Assembly (NCBI GenBank): GCA_030549175.1
Contig: JAUKUA010000004.1
Span: 5,146,001 to 5,210,000 of the forward strand
Length of the DNA stretch: 64,000 bases
Origin: Lasiosphaeris hirsuta
Lineage: Eukaryota > Ascomycota > Sordariomycetes > Sordariales > Lasiosphaeriaceae
Direction of reading: 5' to 3'
Below, piece by piece: positions 432 to 51,048 of the stretch. Both the position numbers and the translations under genes were made by a program. The notes under the pieces were generated by a model. It ran no database searches. It saw only the letters and a list, made by a program, of their open reading frames with translations, and was not told the origin of the DNA. Positions within the stretch are counted from its first letter, which is position 1. Every line of letters starts with the position of its first letter.

Positions 432-447
432 CTATATATATATATAA
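432..447 (+). promoter_or_regulatory. TATA-like core promoter of the AAA ATPase gene
   Basis: An alternating TA tract is followed by a CT-rich leader (about 468-520), as in fungal core promoters. No ATG occurs between this box and 597, so the ATG at 597 is the first AUG of the predicted mRNA and fixes the start of the H3-like N terminus. Confidence 0.6.
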
Positions 448-596
448 GTCTTGATCTCTCACGCTCTTCCTTCTTTTTTCTTTTCCTTCAAAAGCTCTTC
501 TTCTTCATCTACTACTCTTGTTGACTTCCTCATCACAAGACCTGTGGCCTGTCTTATTTTATACAGAGACTTTTGGGTATTCCTACAAGACTCAAC

Positions 597-2654
597 ATGG
601 CTCGCACCAGACAGACAGCCCGACGCAGCGTACCGGACCCCGACCCCAATGGTGTGCCCGACGAGGAGGAGCAGCAGGAGATGCTCGGCCACCTGACGGA
701 AGAGGAAAAGGCGCGGCGGGCCGAGCTCGAGAAGGCGCCGATGCAGGCCGAGCTCAAGCACCTCGAGAAGCGGTGGACCAAGAAGGGCCGGGGGTACATC
801 ACCGAGCCCAAGGACGACGACGAGCTGCCCGAGGACAAGTTCAACTGGTACGACAAGTTCGCGCTGTGCGTGACGCGCCAGTACGACATGCAGAACAAGT
901 ACGTGCAGCGCACCAGCCTCCAGATCAACTCGCAGGCCCTCAAGGACATCCTGTCCGAAATCATTGCGGCCTACCCGGGCCAATCCTTCGCCACGGCCGA
1001 CGTCGCCATCGACTTCCCGGCCCACTGCCTGTACCACTACCAGCCCGAGCTGGACGCGGCCGTGGCCAAGCAGGAGCCCGGGTCTGACGGGGCCGCCCAC
1101 CTGCCCATCCTGCTCGATTTCATCGATGAGCACTTTGCCGACGAGATCAAGCAAGGCGACAACCTTCGCGACAAGGGGCTGGTGTCGTACGAGCACCTGT
1201 GGACCCTCTTCCGCCCGGGCTCGCTCGTCTTCGGGAGCAAAAAGGGGCAGGCGCGCGTGTTCAAGCTGGACAACTACCACTACGCGGGCGGGCAGTGCGC
1301 AGGGCTGCAGCTGCAGGTCCAGTTCACCGACTACGACGGCGACGACTTTGGTACGCGCTTCGACGGGCTCTTCATCCCGCAGTTCGCGGGCGCCGTGCCC
1401 ATCGCGTCGCTGCCGGCGCTGCCGCTGCAGTTCCACCCGGACCCTGAGGGCGTGCGGCGCGCCCTGACGGCCCGCGGCCGCCGTTGGGAGGCCCTGGCCG
1501 GCCAGAACTTCCGCGAGTACAAGGGCGTGGCCACCGACGCCGACGGCGGCCGCTTCAACATCGACGGCCGCGTCATGGTCGATACCCACACCTTCCACCG
1601 CATCGAGGCCGACGACGCCTACAACGTGGCGCCCTTCCCCAAGCCCAAGCCGGCCGTGCCCTTTGGCACCAAGCGCAAGCAGTCCCTGACCTCGGACGAC
1701 TGGGACCTCATCCCCGAGCAAGACGCGGCGGCCGAGAGGAAGGCGCTCGCGCCCCTGACGGACGACCAGGCGCTGCTGGCCTCGGCCGTCGTCCGCGGCT
1801 TCTCCTTCACCGAGAAGAAGTTCCTCGAGTTCTTCGTCGACAGGCTGCGGCCTGTCGACTGGAACACGTCGTGCTTTGAGCAGCTGGTGCTGCCCGAGTC
1901 GCAGAAGGAGCTGGTGCAGGCGCTGGTGGCCGAGCACACGCAGCGGTCGGCCGCGGCCGGCCGCGGCTTCGACGACATCGTCAAGGGCAAGGGTCAGGGG
2001 CTGATCCTGGTGCTGCACGGCCCGCCGGGCGTGGGCAAGACGCTGACGGCCGAGTGCGTGGCCGAGTTTAGCAGGAGGCCGCTGTACATTGTGTCGAGCG
2101 GGGACCTGGGCACGACGGCGTCGACGCTGGACGAGAAGCTGAGCCGGACCCTGGACCTGGCGTCGACGTGGAACGCCGTGCTGCTGATCGACGAGGCCGA
2201 CGTCTTCCTCGAGCGGCGCTCGCTGCACGACATGAACCGCAACGGGCTCGTGTCCATCTTCCTGCGCACGCTCGAGTACTACTCGGGCATCCTGTTCATG
2301 ACGACGAACCGCGTGCGCACCTTTGACGACGCCTTCAAGTCGCGCATCCACGTGCCGCTCAAGTACACCGACCTGTCGCCCGAGAGCCGGCTCAAGGTCT
2401 GGCGCAACTTCCTCGCCCGCATCGAGGGCGGCATCGACATCGACGAGGACGGCTACCGCCAGCTCGCCAAGGGCAAGCTCAACGGCCGCCAGATCAAGAA
2501 CGTCGTCCGCACCGCCAAGAGCCTGGCCAGCTACAAGCGCCGCAAGCTCGACCAGAAGCAGCTGCAGCAGGTCATGGACATCCAGATGTCCTTTGAGCAC
2601 GACCTGGACTCGGCGAGCAAGGGCGATCAGGATATTGACATGGTCCAGCGGTGA
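597..2654 (+). CDS. AAA+ ATPase with a histone H3 tail-like N terminus
   Basis: Single-exon protein of 685 aa. The C-terminal half is an AAA+ module: Walker A GPPGVGKT at 475-482, Walker B VLLIDEADVFLE near 528-539, sensor MTTN at 568-571 and an arginine-rich stretch ending in SRIHVPLKY near 582-590. The middle part (about 195-300, LWTLFRPGSLVFG onward) resembles the DUF7025-type domain found before the AAA module in many uncharacterised fungal ATPases. Residues 1-11 read MARTRQTARRS, which is the H3 tail MARTKQTARKS with K4R and K9R. The start is secure: first AUG after the TATA box, C-A-A-C before ATG-G, and no intron. Substrate and location are unknown. Chromatin association through the tail is inference only. 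Confidence 0.85.
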   Translation: MARTRQTARRSVPDPDPNGVPDEEEQQEMLGHLTEEEKARRAELEKAPMQAELKHLEKRWTKKGRGYITEPKDDDELPEDKFNWYDKFALCVTRQYDMQNKYVQRTSLQINSQALKDILSEIIAAYPGQSFATADVAIDFPAHCLYHYQPELDAAVAKQEPGSDGAAHLPILLDFIDEHFADEIKQGDNLRDKGLVSYEHLWTLFRPGSLVFGSKKGQARVFKLDNYHYAGGQCAGLQLQVQFTDYDGDDFGTRFDGLFIPQFAGAVPIASLPALPLQFHPDPEGVRRALTARGRRWEALAGQNFREYKGVATDADGGRFNIDGRVMVDTHTFHRIEADDAYNVAPFPKPKPAVPFGTKRKQSLTSDDWDLIPEQDAAAERKALAPLTDDQALLASAVVRGFSFTEKKFLEFFVDRLRPVDWNTSCFEQLVLPESQKELVQALVAEHTQRSAAAGRGFDDIVKGKGQGLILVLHGPPGVGKTLTAECVAEFSRRPLYIVSSGDLGTTASTLDEKLSRTLDLASTWNAVLLIDEADVFLERRSLHDMNRNGLVSIFLRTLEYYSGILFMTTNRVRTFDDAFKSRIHVPLKYTDLSPESRLKVWRNFLARIEGGIDIDEDGYRQLAKGKLNGRQIKNVVRTAKSLASYKRRKLDQKQLQQVMDIQMSFEHDLDSASKGDQDIDMVQR

Positions 2655-3029
2655 TGGGTGTTTGGATTCTCTTGTCCTTCTGGCCATCTTGTTGGCAATA
2701 GGGCTTTGGAGTTTGGTGAAGAACCGGTAGTAGTAGTACTAACTAGCATACTTGATATGAATCAATTTAAATCTCGGCATTAAATGTTAAACGTCCAAGA
2801 CCATCTTCCTGATCCGATATCCACGTCGTCAGCCGCCGAGACTGAACCAGGCGCTACCCCTTTCGACTAGATGCCGCGCTTTCTTTATGTAGACCTGCTG
2901 GACGGTAAGGTTGTAGTCAGGGGTGACGCCGGTGAAATGTGTTCTCACGGGTAGGTTGGCTAGGCCCAAGGTGCAATTCCTTGACCCGGAGTCGATTTGA
3001 ACCGTTCGCGCTGTAGAACAAAGCTCTCT
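2655..3029. other. Spacer downstream of the AAA ATPase
   Basis: AT-rich 3' flank that probably holds the transcript end. No coding signal was seen. Confidence 0.4.
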
Positions 3030-3192: not shown

Positions 3193-3846
3193 TTAGCAGG
3201 AGCGAATCGAGCCTTCGTCCGATTTGAATGCCGCAGCAATCAAGGGTGTTAGCCCATCCCTCGCTTTTTGATCGACATTAGCTCCCAAGACCAGCAATTC
3301 GCCCACAATCGTCACATCTCTTACCGCACAGGCACAATGTAACGGGGCACAGCGGTGATCCTGACAGTTCACGGCACAGAGACCTGCCTGCCCCTTGTTC
3401 CACAAGAGCTCGAACAGTAGCGATACTGCTACTTGCCACCGCCATGTTGAGCAGAGTAATGCCACCTGTGCTCTCGTCAATTTTAGTACCTCTTTGAACC
3501 AGGAGGCTCATGACTCCAATGTTGCCCTTGAACACAGCGTTGTGGAGAGGGGAGGATCTTTCGTTGCCCGAGGTTTGACCGACCGACGCTCCCGCGTCGA
3601 GCAACGCTTTGGCGATTTCTGGTTCATCCGCGAAATATAACGGTGCCATTCCGGGCATGAGTGTTGACGTCGATACCGGCGCCGGCATGTAGGAGCGCTG
3701 ACAAGATGGGTTTGTTGTCTAAGGGTCGCTACCCAGTGAAGTAAGGTCATCCCGTCTGAATCTCTGCAGGAAATGTCTGTTTTGTGCGACGAATCTGGGC
3801 ACACAAAATTTTCTTTTTCGTACCTTGAGCATGTGACGTTACTCAC
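3193..3846 (-). pseudogene. Ankyrin-repeat gene remnant, frameshifted
   Basis: Ankyrin-like signatures occur on the minus strand in three different frames. From the 5' side these are DSDGMTLLHWVATL (about 3740-3790), then ERSSPLHNAVFKGNIGVMSLLVQRG and a following repeat (about 3430-3570), then CAPLHCACAVRDVTIVGELL with DGLTPLIAAAF (about 3215-3370). Repeats keep their spacing but change frame, and no splice pair joins them cleanly, so this looks like a decayed gene. Degraded sequence may continue to about 3030. The intact family would be a protein-interaction scaffold, often a STAND or HET partner in fungi. A multi-intron gene with poor splice sites remains possible. Confidence 0.65.
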
Positions 3847-5343
3847 CCTGGCTCAGGCTCGGCTCAGTCCCTTCTCAGGCTGGCTCACCTTTGCTTACCC
3901 TTTCTGCACAGCGGAGAAGAGAGGTGGGAGCGAGCGAGCGAGCGAGCACATACAAGATGGCCAGTTTTGTGTGCCAACAGCAGCTTCATGAGTCTTGCGA
4001 GACAGATACACCTTATCAGCCTCTCAGGGGGTGGCGGCTTCCGGGAAGGCGGGGGCGTCTTCATGTTCTTCGAGGATGGTGCGGAGAGGGGGACTCGGGC
4101 TGAAGTGCTGGTGCAGTCAGTACCTGTAGAGCAATCTTCTTGAAAGTCGGCGGCGTGGCCTCGAACCCCGTTGCTTGTGGCTTGAAAAGGTACTCGAGAT
4201 CAACGGTAGCTCGGTATCGTTGCTGTTGGCTAATAACAGCTCTGCGACAATGTTCGATTTTAGGCGGGAGTGCTAGATGCCCTCTGAACGTAGAGCAGAG
4301 GTGGTGACGTAGGAGCAACAAACTTTCGGCAAATAAAATTTCAGCCCTTGTCCCCGCTAAAAATATCTTGAATCTCTAGGTGAAAATGAACCCTCTCATC
4401 ACGGCGTGGTAAAGTCATAAACTAGGGTACATACCAGAGGTCACGTAGGTACATTACAAGCAAAACGTCGGGCCTTGTTTCCCCTCTTATCAGCTATGGA
4501 AATAGCCATACATGTGAAGAAGGCTGAATCCTACGAAGAGGTCTATAAGAGGTTATCGTTGGAAGCCAAAACCTCACACAGAAGCAACACAATCAAGCAA
4601 TTGCAGCCACTTCAAATCCATCATATCTAGAGTGTAGTGTTTCTGACACTAATGGAGGCCGTAAACTAAGTTTTATGTGACTTTAGGTGAAAAGGAAGAG
4701 GAGCGAATAAAGGGTGGTGTGATGGTCCCAGTTTTGGGCCACCTGTGTCCCAAAAGCTGAGAGCTCGCGAAAAGTTACTTTTTGAACTGCAAAGCACTGC
4801 CTACTCGTCTAAACTATGTTTGGCCATTTCTCTGATCATTTACTGAACAGTGCCTAGGTAACGCCTAAGCAAAGTGGCTAGGGGTGGTGCGGGTAACTGG
4901 GCGTTGGTGAGGGCAACTTTAGGCTTAAACAACACCCCAGGCGTACTGCCTTGCAGTCTGTTATCTTACCGGGTGCACTAGTATGTACCAGTATACTTCA
5001 GGCCAGTACGTTATGTACTGGTATATTCTAGGTGCTAGTTTATTATGTTCCAGCCCATCTAATATACTGGTATATTAAATACTGACCCAATTTTGATACC
5101 AAAATACTATGTACTATCCTAGGGATTAGACTACGATGCCACGTGCTATCCCCTAATATGTACCAGTATATGCCAGAAACGTGGACACTGCGGGTGACAT
5201 CGAAAGGGAACTTTAGCCTAGGGGACTGAGAATGGGCCTCTGAGGTTGTGCAGCTGCGACGTATGGGATCACCCTAGCTCAGGGAAGAATCAGGGAAAGC
5301 TCGGGACAAATCAGTCACATCTCACCCCAGCTCAGGAGTACGG
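3847..5343. repeat. Repeat-rich, gene-free block
   Basis: About 1.5 kb without usable frames, lying between two inverted ankyrin-related segments. It holds several copies of a TCACCC(T/C)(G/A)GCTCAG motif (near 3842, 5270 and 5318) and a set of TAcCAGTAta/TACTGGTAta boxes (4982-5172). It looks like an old, mutated mobile or repeated element, but no transposase was recognised. Confidence 0.4.
4982..5172. repeat. Four alternating inverted 14-15 bp boxes
   Basis: Copies of TATGTACCAGTATAC lie at 4982-4996 and 5157-5171. Near reverse complements (TATGTACTGGTATAT) lie at 5012-5026 and 5062-5075. The arrangement could fold into hairpins or be binding sites; the function is unknown. Confidence 0.6.
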
Positions 5344-48874: not shown

Positions 48875-51048
48875 ATGCCTCCAAAGAAGGCGACGACGAC
48901 GGGCACTGGTGCCCTGGCCAACTGCACCATCGTCTTCAGTGGCCAGTTTACTGGCTTCACACAGGCCACTCTGAAGAAGCAGGCCGAAGGACTGGGCGCA
49001 AAGGTTACGGCCACGGTGACCAGCGCCACAACCCACCTCGTCGCCACCAAGAGCGACTTCCTCACCACGTCAAGCAAAGTTTCCAAGGCTGGGGACCTGG
49101 GAATCCCCATCGTGGCCCTGCCATGGCTCACTAGTTCTGACACCAACAAGGCTAGGGAGCCAGAGGCCAAGTACGCCTTTGCCTCGACCGGAGACGACGA
49201 GGACGAGCAGGATGACGAGGATGGCGCCCAGAAGGGCACATCGCACAAGAGAAGCCGCACCGAGATGGAAGGTGCAGCGACGGAAGACGGCCCCGCGATG
49301 ATGAAAGGTTCGGTCCGAGCAATGCCAAAGCCTAAGATTCACGTCCCGCTCGACGAGCACTGCCCCTTCGCCAACTGCTCTGTCCTCATCGGCCACGGGG
49401 GCATGGTCTACGATGCCGCTCTGAACCAGACCAATGCCAGCCACAACAATAACAAGTTCTACCGGATCCAAGCGAGTACCCTCCAATCGTCTATGCCTCT
49501 GCGCCACAGACTAACAAGATCCCAGCTTCTCACCGAGGGCGACGGAGCCTACAGAGTTTGGACCCGCTGGGGCCGTGTTGGAGAGCAAGGCCAGACTGGT
49601 AAGGACACCACGGCCCTCCCCCTCGAAGCCGCCATCCGTCTGTTCGACAAGAAGTTCAGAGATAAGACGGGACTTTCTTGGATAACCGTAACGAGGATCC
49701 CAAGCCCGGCAAGTACGTCTTTGTCGAGCGCAACTATACCGTCGACTCAGACGACTCAGACCCGGAGACCGAGGACACCAAGGACACGACAAAGGCGGCC
49801 GACTGGGAGCCGCCCAAGTCGGCCCTCGCCCCACCCGTGCAGGATCTGATGGCGCTCATCTTCAACGCGCAGTTCTTCAGCGCGGCCATGTCGGACCTCA
49901 ACTACGACGCCAACAAGCTGCCACTGGGCAAGCTGAGCAAGGGTGTCATCACACGCGGCTTCCAGGCGCTCAAGGACTTGTCGGACCTGCTCAACGACCA
50001 CTCGCTGGCGCAGACGACGTACGCCAAGGCCTTTCCGGCGGCCGTCGAGGACCTCTCCAACGCCTTTTACTCGTTGATCCCGCACGCCTTCGGCCGCAGC
50101 CGGCCGCCCATCATCCATACCCAGCTCATGGTCAAGAAAGAGATAGAGCTTCTGGAAAGCCTGAGCGACATGAAGGACGCCGCCCTCATCATGCGGCTCG
50201 AGAACGGCAGCGCCAAGGACGCTGTGCACCCCATGGACCGCCAGTTCGCCGCCCTGAACCTCGGCGAGATGACCCCGCTGGACCCGGCCTCGGCCGAGTT
50301 CCACCACCTGCAGGACTACCTGGTAAAGACCCACGGCGCCACGCACTCCAACGTTAAGTACGCAGTCGAGGCCATCTTCCGCGTCGAGCGCCAAGGGGAG
50401 CGGGAGAGTTTCGCGTTCCGGTTCCCGGGACCCGCGCAAGACCGGCGGCTGCTGTGGCACGGGTCGCGCACGACCAACTTCGGCGGCATCCTGTCGCAGG
50501 GCCTACGCATCGCCCCGCCCGAAGCTCCGGTCAACGGCTACATGTTCGGCAAGGGCGTGTACCTGGCCGACATGTCGTCCAAGTCGGCCAACTACTGCAT
50601 GGCCGGGGCCTCTGGCGGTACGGGGTTGCTCCTGCTGTGCGAGGCCGAGCTGGGCCGGCCTATGCACGAGCTTACCCGCGCGTCGTACAGCGCCGCCGAG
50701 GATGCCAAGAAGGGCGGTATGCTGGCTACCTGGGGCCAGGGCACCACCGGCCCGCAGCGTTGGAAGGACGCCGAGTGCGTGCATCCCGACCTCGAGGGGG
50801 TCACCATGGTAAGAAAAGCACCTTTTTGGAGCGAAAGTAGGCCTATTTCAACCCCCAAAACGCCTATTTGCCTCGCAAAAACCCCTTTTTTTGCTCCTCA
50901 AAAGGCATTTGCTAACTCAAAATAGCCCGATACTACTGTCGCGCCGGGCCCCACGGGCGTCGCCGGAGCCTCGTTGTTCTACAACGAGTACATCTGCTAC
51001 GACACGGCGCAGTTACGGCTCCGGTACCTGTTCCGTGTCAAGATGTGA
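48875..51048 (+). CDS. Poly(ADP-ribose) polymerase (BRCT-WGR-PARP), apparent frameshift
   Basis: Exons 48875-49471, 49526-50808 and 50926-51048. It adds ADP-ribose from NAD+ to proteins in the nucleus in response to DNA damage. BRCT lies at the N terminus (LANCTIVFSGQFTGFTQATLKKQAEGLGAKV). WGR spans the first intron (NKFYRIQ-LLTEGDGAYRVWTRWGRVGEQGQ). The helical regulatory domain follows, then the catalytic domain with the H-Y-E triad: LLWHGSR, GKGVYLADMSSKSANY and NEYICYD. Intron 1 is GC-AG (GCGAGT...CCCAG, 54 nt, with an ACTAAC branch point). At 49679-49683 the WGR frame (...KTGLSW) and the following frame (DNRNEDPKPGKY) are offset by one base, as if one G were missing from TTGG(G)AT. This is either a genuine mutation or a sequence error. 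Confidence 0.9.

What the first reader, a model, noticed from the sequence alone, without database searches (positions are those of the whole stretch)
597..2654. AAA+ ATPase carrying a histone H3 tail mimic with K4R and K9R
Seen: the first 11 codons specify MARTRQTARRS. Canonical H3 begins MARTKQTARKS. Nine of eleven residues are identical, and the two differences fall exactly on the two regulatory lysines, both changed to arginine. The ATG is the first after a TATA box and leader, and no intron intervenes, so the tail is at the true N terminus. Ala at position 2 predicts Met removal, leaving the same free N terminus as H3. Known: H3 readers and writers contact A1, R2, T3, K4, R8, K9 and S10; lysine-to-arginine keeps charge but blocks methylation by lysine methyltransferases. 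Inference: the ATPase could dock on H3-tail-binding modules as a constitutively unmethylated-like decoy, or recruit an AAA motor to chromatin. I know of no described fungal ATPase of this kind.
Basis: partly seen in the sequence, partly recalled or inferred. Interest (0 to 1): 0.93.

Follow-up and report, generated by a model that had tools for sequence, protein, structure and literature searches.

The report
Fungal ATPase wearing histone H3's tail
A family of fungal AAA+ ATPases starts with a conserved copy of the histone H3 tail, most likely used as a hook for proteins that grip the end of H3; the two lysines that readers of histone marks care about turn out to be the most dispensable part of it.

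Summary
In detail: the ORF at 597-2654 begins MARTRQTARRS at the first ATG after a TATA box. It belongs to a fungal DUF7025-AAA-AAA_lid_13 family. Of 120 listed rows (window protein included), 107 have a complete N-terminus and 74 of those match H3 1-10 at 6 or more positions, in Sordariomycetes, Eurotiomycetes and Dothideomycetes; two match H3 1-22 at 21 of 22. The kept element is A1-R2-T3-x-Q5-T6-A7-R8, with an edge after R8. K4 and K9 are the fastest-changing of the first nine positions, so K4R/K9R is a local variant of a conserved mimic, not its point. H3-like starts recur in 4 of 120 listed sister-paralogue rows, in three places of the tree. Rows with lost or degraded tails tend to have faster-evolving cores. 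Best explanation: a lysine-independent docking hook on a classical AAA ATPase for a pocket that holds the free H3 N-terminus (KDM1/LSD1 or RbAp48/Caf1 type). The partner is inferred, not shown. Seven literature searches aimed at it found no description.

The parts
597..2654 (+). AAA+ ATPase gene, 685 aa, one uninterrupted frame
   Evidence: relatives of similar length align over most or all of it
597..629 (+). H3-tail mimic MARTRQTARRS; conserved core A-R-T-x-Q-T-A-R is codons 2-9 (600-623)
630..740 (+). acidic linker (residues 12-48), fast-evolving at its start, with two predicted helices (23-30, 35-46)
   Evidence: site rates; predicted structure; median net charge -7 over the 26 residues behind the core in 74 tail rows
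1158..1439 (+). DUF7025 domain (residues 188-281)
   Evidence: Pfam PF22942, 1.1e-24
2010..2351 (+). AAA ATPase domain (residues 472-585); Walker A GPPGVGKT 475-482, Walker B LLIDEAD 529-535
2373..2621 (+). fungal AAA lid (residues 593-675)
   Evidence: Pfam PF23232, 4.1e-07
433..447 (+). TATA-box-like TATATATATATATAA upstream of the only ATG in the leader

Best explanation
The first nine codons encode a short linear motif copied from histone H3: after Met removal (inferred from Ala at position 2) it presents a free N-terminus A-R-T-x-Q-T-A-R on a flexible tip ahead of an acidic linker and a classical AAA+ ATPase. It works as a constitutive hook: it docks in a pocket that normally holds the unmodified N-terminus of H3 and reads A1, R2, T3, Q5, T6, A7 and R8, and so brings the ATPase to a chromatin complex or draws that complex off H3. 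Lysine methylation plays no necessary part. The likeliest pocket types are the KDM1/LSD1 groove (used by SNAG-motif proteins) and the RbAp48/Caf1 central pocket (which coordinates A1 and R2); neither fits perfectly. A hexameric ring would offer six tails (inferred from the AAA fold). Shown: sequence, family, conservation footprint, low model confidence at the tip, presence of KDM1-like and RbAp48-like genes. Inferred: Met removal, nuclear location, docking, partner, outcome.
For: 74 of 107 complete N-termini keep 6 or more of 10 H3 residues. Fitch changes on 73 rows: A1 4, R2 1, T3 4, K4 18, Q5 3, T6 9, A7 3, R8 4, K9 27, S10 26, positions 11-20 29-41. Site rates: A1 0.26, R2 0.07, T3 0.29, Q5 0.39, T6 0.68, A7 0.55, R8 0.50 against a core median of 0.42; K4 1.69, K9 1.84, positions 11-20 at the ceiling 3.85. 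Matches of 21 of 22 residues (P0089, P0098) point to a real H3 origin or strong mimicry. H3-like starts recur in 4 of 120 listed sister-paralogue rows, all four at residue 1, in 3 places of the tree. Rows with lost or degraded tails have longer core branches in 23 of 26 nearest-pair comparisons. Residues 1-10 have mean pLDDT 49 in a model of mean 86. The genome encodes a SWIRM plus amine-oxidase protein in one frame at C1:6867491-6869527 and two CAF1C_H4-bd matches. Precedents: SNAG resembles the H3 N-terminus and binds KDM1A (PMC6794713, passages); Caf1 coordinates H3 A1 and R2 (PMC10148413, passages).
Against: No binding, localisation or expression data. K4 is still K in 53 of 74 rows and basic in 61, so it may matter somewhat. 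Against KDM1: in GFI1/GFI1B the change P2A abolishes KDM1A binding and methylation of K8 is needed for efficient binding, whereas here residue 2 is Ala and lysine is dispensable (H3 itself has Ala there). Against RbAp48: K4 methylation weakens Caf1 binding and the lysine of the RBBP4 motif is essential (PMC11602157, passages). Of 107 complete models, 22 score under 3 and 11 score 3-5, so the tail is dispensable in some lineages, though at least 4 of the 22 look like mis-set starts. A crude nuclear-signal pattern was found in 45 of 119 rows and not in the window protein. Positions were counted only in rows already scoring as tails, which inflates the absolute level but not the ranking of positions.
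Confidence: 0.52

Rival explanations
1. Methylation-sensitive decoy or switch: the tail is read or written at K4 and K9, and in this lineage K4R/K9R locks it in an unmethylated-like state.
For: K4 is K in 53 of 74 and K9 is K in 28 of 74 rows; 22 rows keep both. SNAG binding of KDM1A in GFI1B depends on a methylated lysine (PMC6794713, passages).
Against: Positions 4 and 9 are the fastest-changing of the first nine, with replacements to R, A, L, T, G and others; 15 of 74 rows have lysine at neither.
Confidence: 0.13
2. The tail is an arginine-modification site: R2 and R8 are substrates of a PRMT, and the ATPase is regulated by that mark.
For: R2 is the most conserved residue (73 of 74) and R8 is kept in 68 of 74.
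Against: It does not by itself explain why A1, T3, Q5 and A7 are about equally kept; no PRMT was tested.
Confidence: 0.1
3. Pseudosubstrate: the ATPase acts on histone H3 by taking its tail into the ring pore, as Abo1/ATAD2 do, and its own tail competes or autoinhibits.
For: Abo1 and ATAD2 bind the H3 tail at the AAA+ pore (PMC6917787, PMC10539301; passages). The domain fits p97/FtsH-type AAA folds.
Against: The pore-loop-1 region lacks the aromatic residue typical of threading AAA proteins (typicality recalled; Abo1 has W345): no W, F or Y between SSGDL and LD in 115 of 116 rows where the segment was found, 4 of 120 not found; it aligns to the WVG segment of fidgetin-like 1 without an aromatic. 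No bromodomain in Pfam.
Confidence: 0.12
4. Neutral relic: an H3 first exon was captured once by chance and the remainder is slowly eroding without function.
For: Residues 11-22 did erode, and several lineages lost the tail.
Against: Positions 1-3 and 5-8 evolve at about the pace of the folded core while their neighbours saturate; H3-like starts appear again in sister paralogues.
Confidence: 0.05

Closest known systems
SNAG motif (SNAIL1, GFI1/GFI1B) docking on KDM1A/LSD1
   Same: An N-terminal hook that resembles the H3 N-terminus and binds KDM1A much as the H3 tail does (PMC6794713, passages); position 4 is not lysine in SNAG motifs (recalled)
   Different: GFI1-type SNAG needs Pro at residue 2 and a methylated K8; here residue 2 is Ala, the sequence is H3's own ART.QTAR, and the carrier is an AAA+ ATPase. 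LSD1 binding was not tested
N-terminal NuRD interaction motif RRKQxxP (FOG-1, SALL, BCL11) docking on RBBP4/RbAp48
   Same: A short N-terminal basic motif bound by a histone-binding WD40 protein (PMC11602157, passages)
   Different: No tail row contains RRKQxxP or RxKQxxP (0 of 74)
Swi6/HP1 of fission yeast, auto-inhibited by an H3 mimic sequence
   Same: An H3 mimic inside a fungal chromatin protein (mentioned in PMC7192584, passages)
   Different: There it acts within the same protein; the present mimic is a free N-terminus on an ATPase (my comparison; the Swi6 paper itself was not seen)
ATAD2/Abo1/Yta7 bromodomain AAA+ histone chaperones
   Same: AAA+ ATPase linked to the H3 tail (PMC6917787, PMC10539301; passages)
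   Different: There the tail is the substrate; here it is part of the ATPase. No bromodomain, a different N-terminal domain, no aromatic pore loop
Fungal DUF7025-AAA-AAA_lid_13 ATPases, labelled ATAD3B or 'AAA family ATPase' in databases
   Same: Domain order and 91% identity to a Lasiosphaeria hispida protein
   Different: In the sister paralogue family 116 of 120 listed rows score 3 or less of 10, truncated models included

Membership tests
DUF7025-AAA-AAA_lid_13 fungal ATPases | PF22942, PF00004 and PF23232 in order above curated cut-offs | tested here: met
   87, 60.8 and 30.7 bits against cut-offs 27, 21.2 and 27
DUF7025-AAA-AAA_lid_13 fungal ATPases | Intact Walker A and B | tested here: met
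   Present here; GPPGVGKT in 115 and LL[IL]DE[AC]D in 117 of 120 listed rows
Histone H3 | Histone fold | tested here: not met
   No histone family in the Pfam table at E up to 1; the resemblance ends after H3 position 10
SNAG-type KDM1/LSD1 hook | Direct binding to KDM1 in its H3 groove | not testable with these tools
   Only the presence of a SWIRM plus amine-oxidase gene was shown
SNAG-type KDM1/LSD1 hook | Arg as second residue after the start Met is removed, at the true N-terminus | tested here: met
   Tail at residue 1 in 66 of 74 models; R2 in 73 of 74
SNAG-type KDM1/LSD1 hook | Pro right after the start Met, required in GFI1/GFI1B | tested here: not met
   Ala here; Pro in 2 of 74 tail rows
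RRKQxxP NuRD interaction motif | The motif RRKQxxP | tested here: not met
   0 of 74
ATAD2/Abo1/Yta7 | Bromodomain | tested here: not met
   None in Pfam at E up to 1
ATAD2/Abo1/Yta7 | Aromatic pore loop 1 | tested here: not met
   Absent in 115 of 116 rows where the segment was found, of 120; aligned without an aromatic to fidgetin-like 1

The most novel reading that the evidence does not exclude
Filamentous ascomycetes have repeatedly put the H3 N-terminus onto members of one AAA+ ATPase family, making six-valent rings of H3 tails that no lysine mark can switch off. Such rings would capture and mechanically remove H3-end-binding enzymes from chromatin, a class of chromatin regulator that my searches did not find described.
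Probability: 0.2. Interest if true: 0.88.

Novelty: new variant of a known kind. Interest (0 to 1): 0.72.

Why it matters
Known H3 mimics are mostly short internal motifs or animal and viral factors (general knowledge). A free-ended H3 tail kept on an ATPase across three classes of fungi is a natural mutagenesis of the H3 N-terminus: it separates what an H3-end pocket may need (A1, R2, T3, Q5, T6, A7, R8) from what marks need (K4, K9). It points to a possible unknown chromatin role for a large fungal ATPase family. It also means anti-H3 tail antibodies could cross-react in these fungi (inference).

Tried and rejected
A search with residues 1-45 of a long-tailed relative, meant to find other proteins bearing H3 tails, returned 691 hits of which 120 were listed; apart from the query the listed rows were proteins with histone domains named from animals and plants, which told nothing about fungi. 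The first structure model, from 25 rows, was poor (mean pLDDT 63) and was replaced by one from 136 rows. The PDB comparison covered mainly model residues 405-672; the fold of the DUF7025 part was not resolved, and no claim is made about it. Ten ORFs of the window were scanned with Pfam; none is a histone gene, one weak TAFII28 match (below cut-off) and a PARP are the nearest to chromatin. A crude nuclear-signal pattern was inconclusive (45 of 119). Promoter capture from an H3 gene was considered; only the codons and a short upstream stretch were printed, and many third positions differ.

Rows dropped or set aside: the 120 rows include the window protein itself. 13 of 120 had incomplete N-termini. 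P0117 counts among the 107 and the 74 but was left out of the tree, the rate run, the Fitch count of 73 rows and the branch test. In one search, 7 further models with doubtful starts were left out, and the nearest pairs are not strictly independent. A2 held 136 of the 240 proteins listed. The tree used 33 of the 120 window-family rows, chosen by hand, and all 120 listed sister rows; 42 of its 151 inner branches are weak, and it warns of long branches at the outgroup.

Full report

The tail is a family trait. Of 590 hits the best 120 were listed, the window protein among them. Of these, 107 have complete N-termini: 74 match H3 1-10 at 6 or more positions, 11 at 3-5, and 22 at fewer. Tail-bearing rows include named Sordariomycetes (Coniochaeta, Colletotrichum, Gaeumannomyces, Tolypocladium; classes recalled), Exophiala xenobiotica (P0050, Chaetothyriales, Eurotiomycetes) and Septoria linicola (P0084, Mycosphaerellales, Dothideomycetes) (scores). 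Knufia obscura (P0063), in the same clade as Exophiala, has largely lost it (MARGTRRV). In the Dothideomycete part of the tree the match runs much further: P0089 and P0098 agree with H3 1-22 at 21 of 22 positions and P0084 at 20. One database name for P0084 already reads 'Putative histone H3/CENP-A, AAA+ ATPase domain', probably from automatic annotation. In the Sordariomycete part P0004 and P0012 keep 13 residues, ARTKQTARKSTGG. The simplest history is one capture of an H3 tail before these classes split, with erosion from its inner end; convergence or exchange is possible.

What is kept. On a tree made from the core alone, positions 1-3 and 5-8 changed 1-9 times in 73 rows, position 4 changed 18 times, 9 and 10 changed 27 and 26 times, and 11-20 changed 29-41 times. 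Site rates agree: R2 0.07, A1 0.26, T3 0.29, Q5 0.39, R8 0.50, A7 0.55 and T6 0.68, against a core median of 0.42; K4 1.69, K9 1.84, and the ceiling of 3.85 from position 11. So the kept element is A-R-T-x-Q-T-A-R, with a sharp edge. Both lysines lie outside the strong constraint, though K4 is still K in 53 of 74 rows. R at both 4 and 9 is found only here and in the close relative P0002.

Signs of use. The sister paralogue family was searched with the first exon of the host's own copy (537 aa; 249 hits, 120 listed). Its commonest start is MAPG (53 of 120, or 64 counting MAPS and MAPA). Yet 4 of 120 rows start with an H3-like tail (P0276 at 10 of 10; P0252, P0277 and P0290 at 6 of 10), all at residue 1, in three places of the tree: P0276 with P0252 (support 99), P0277 beside a MAPG row (91), P0290 beside a MAPS row (100). 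By chance about 0.001 to 0.005 such rows would be expected (own estimate: 7.8e-6 per Met, one to about five Mets, 120 rows). Exchange between paralogues could also explain P0276. Where the tail is lost or degraded, the ATPase core branch is longer than in the nearest unused tail-bearing row in 23 of 26 pairs; gene-model errors could contribute.

How it most likely works. A free N-terminal Ala, Arg 2 and the QTAR segment, without need of lysine, is what one expects of a hook for a pocket that holds the unmodified H3 end. SNAG motifs do this in KDM1A (PMC6794713, passages), and RbAp48/Caf1 coordinates A1 and R2 in its central pocket (PMC10148413, passages). The host genome encodes a SWIRM plus amine-oxidase protein in one 1020-aa frame and has two matches to the CAF1C domain. 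Neither partner fits perfectly. GFI1-type SNAG needs Pro at residue 2 and a methylated lysine; RBBP4 motifs need their lysine (PMC11602157, passages), and Caf1 binding falls with K4 methylation. The classical AAA body suggests a ring offering six tails (inference). Threading of H3 through its own pore, as in Abo1/ATAD2, is less likely, because the aromatic pore-loop residue is missing. The partner and outcome remain inference.

Literature. Seven searches aimed at the finding of a library of open papers gave no listing that looks like an account of such an ATPase, and none names DUF7025. Searches listed 17, 7 and 3 papers; of these only passages of PMC7192584 were looked at, the rest were judged by title and abstract start. 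Three more searches were for precedents. The library lacks most subscription journals.

Noticed in passing
window 459-2687 (-): A 742-aa open frame lies antisense over the whole ATPase gene; third-position GC of the ATPase is 0.95, so this is probably a composition shadow.
   Followed up: no
window 597-632: Third-position GC of the first 12 codons is 0.58 against 0.95 for the whole gene.
   Followed up: no
window about 3193-3852 (-): By eye, ankyrin-like repeats spread over several frames, like a decayed gene; not tested against Pfam.
   Followed up: partly
window 48875-50925 (+): BRCT and WGR domains followed directly by PARP regulatory and catalytic domains in another frame: probably one PARP gene with an intron.
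   Followed up: partly
host genome G000: The DUF7025-AAA family is expanded: 66 exon-level matches to the window protein in one genome, some with stops inside.
   Followed up: no
P0009, P0100, P0103: Three relatives are modelled as starting MQTAR or MQSAR, as if the true start were MARTMQ(T/S)AR with Met at position 4; DNA not available.
   Followed up: no
P0117: A record named Quercus suber carries this fungal protein with the tail, probably fungal contamination of a plant assembly.
   Followed up: no
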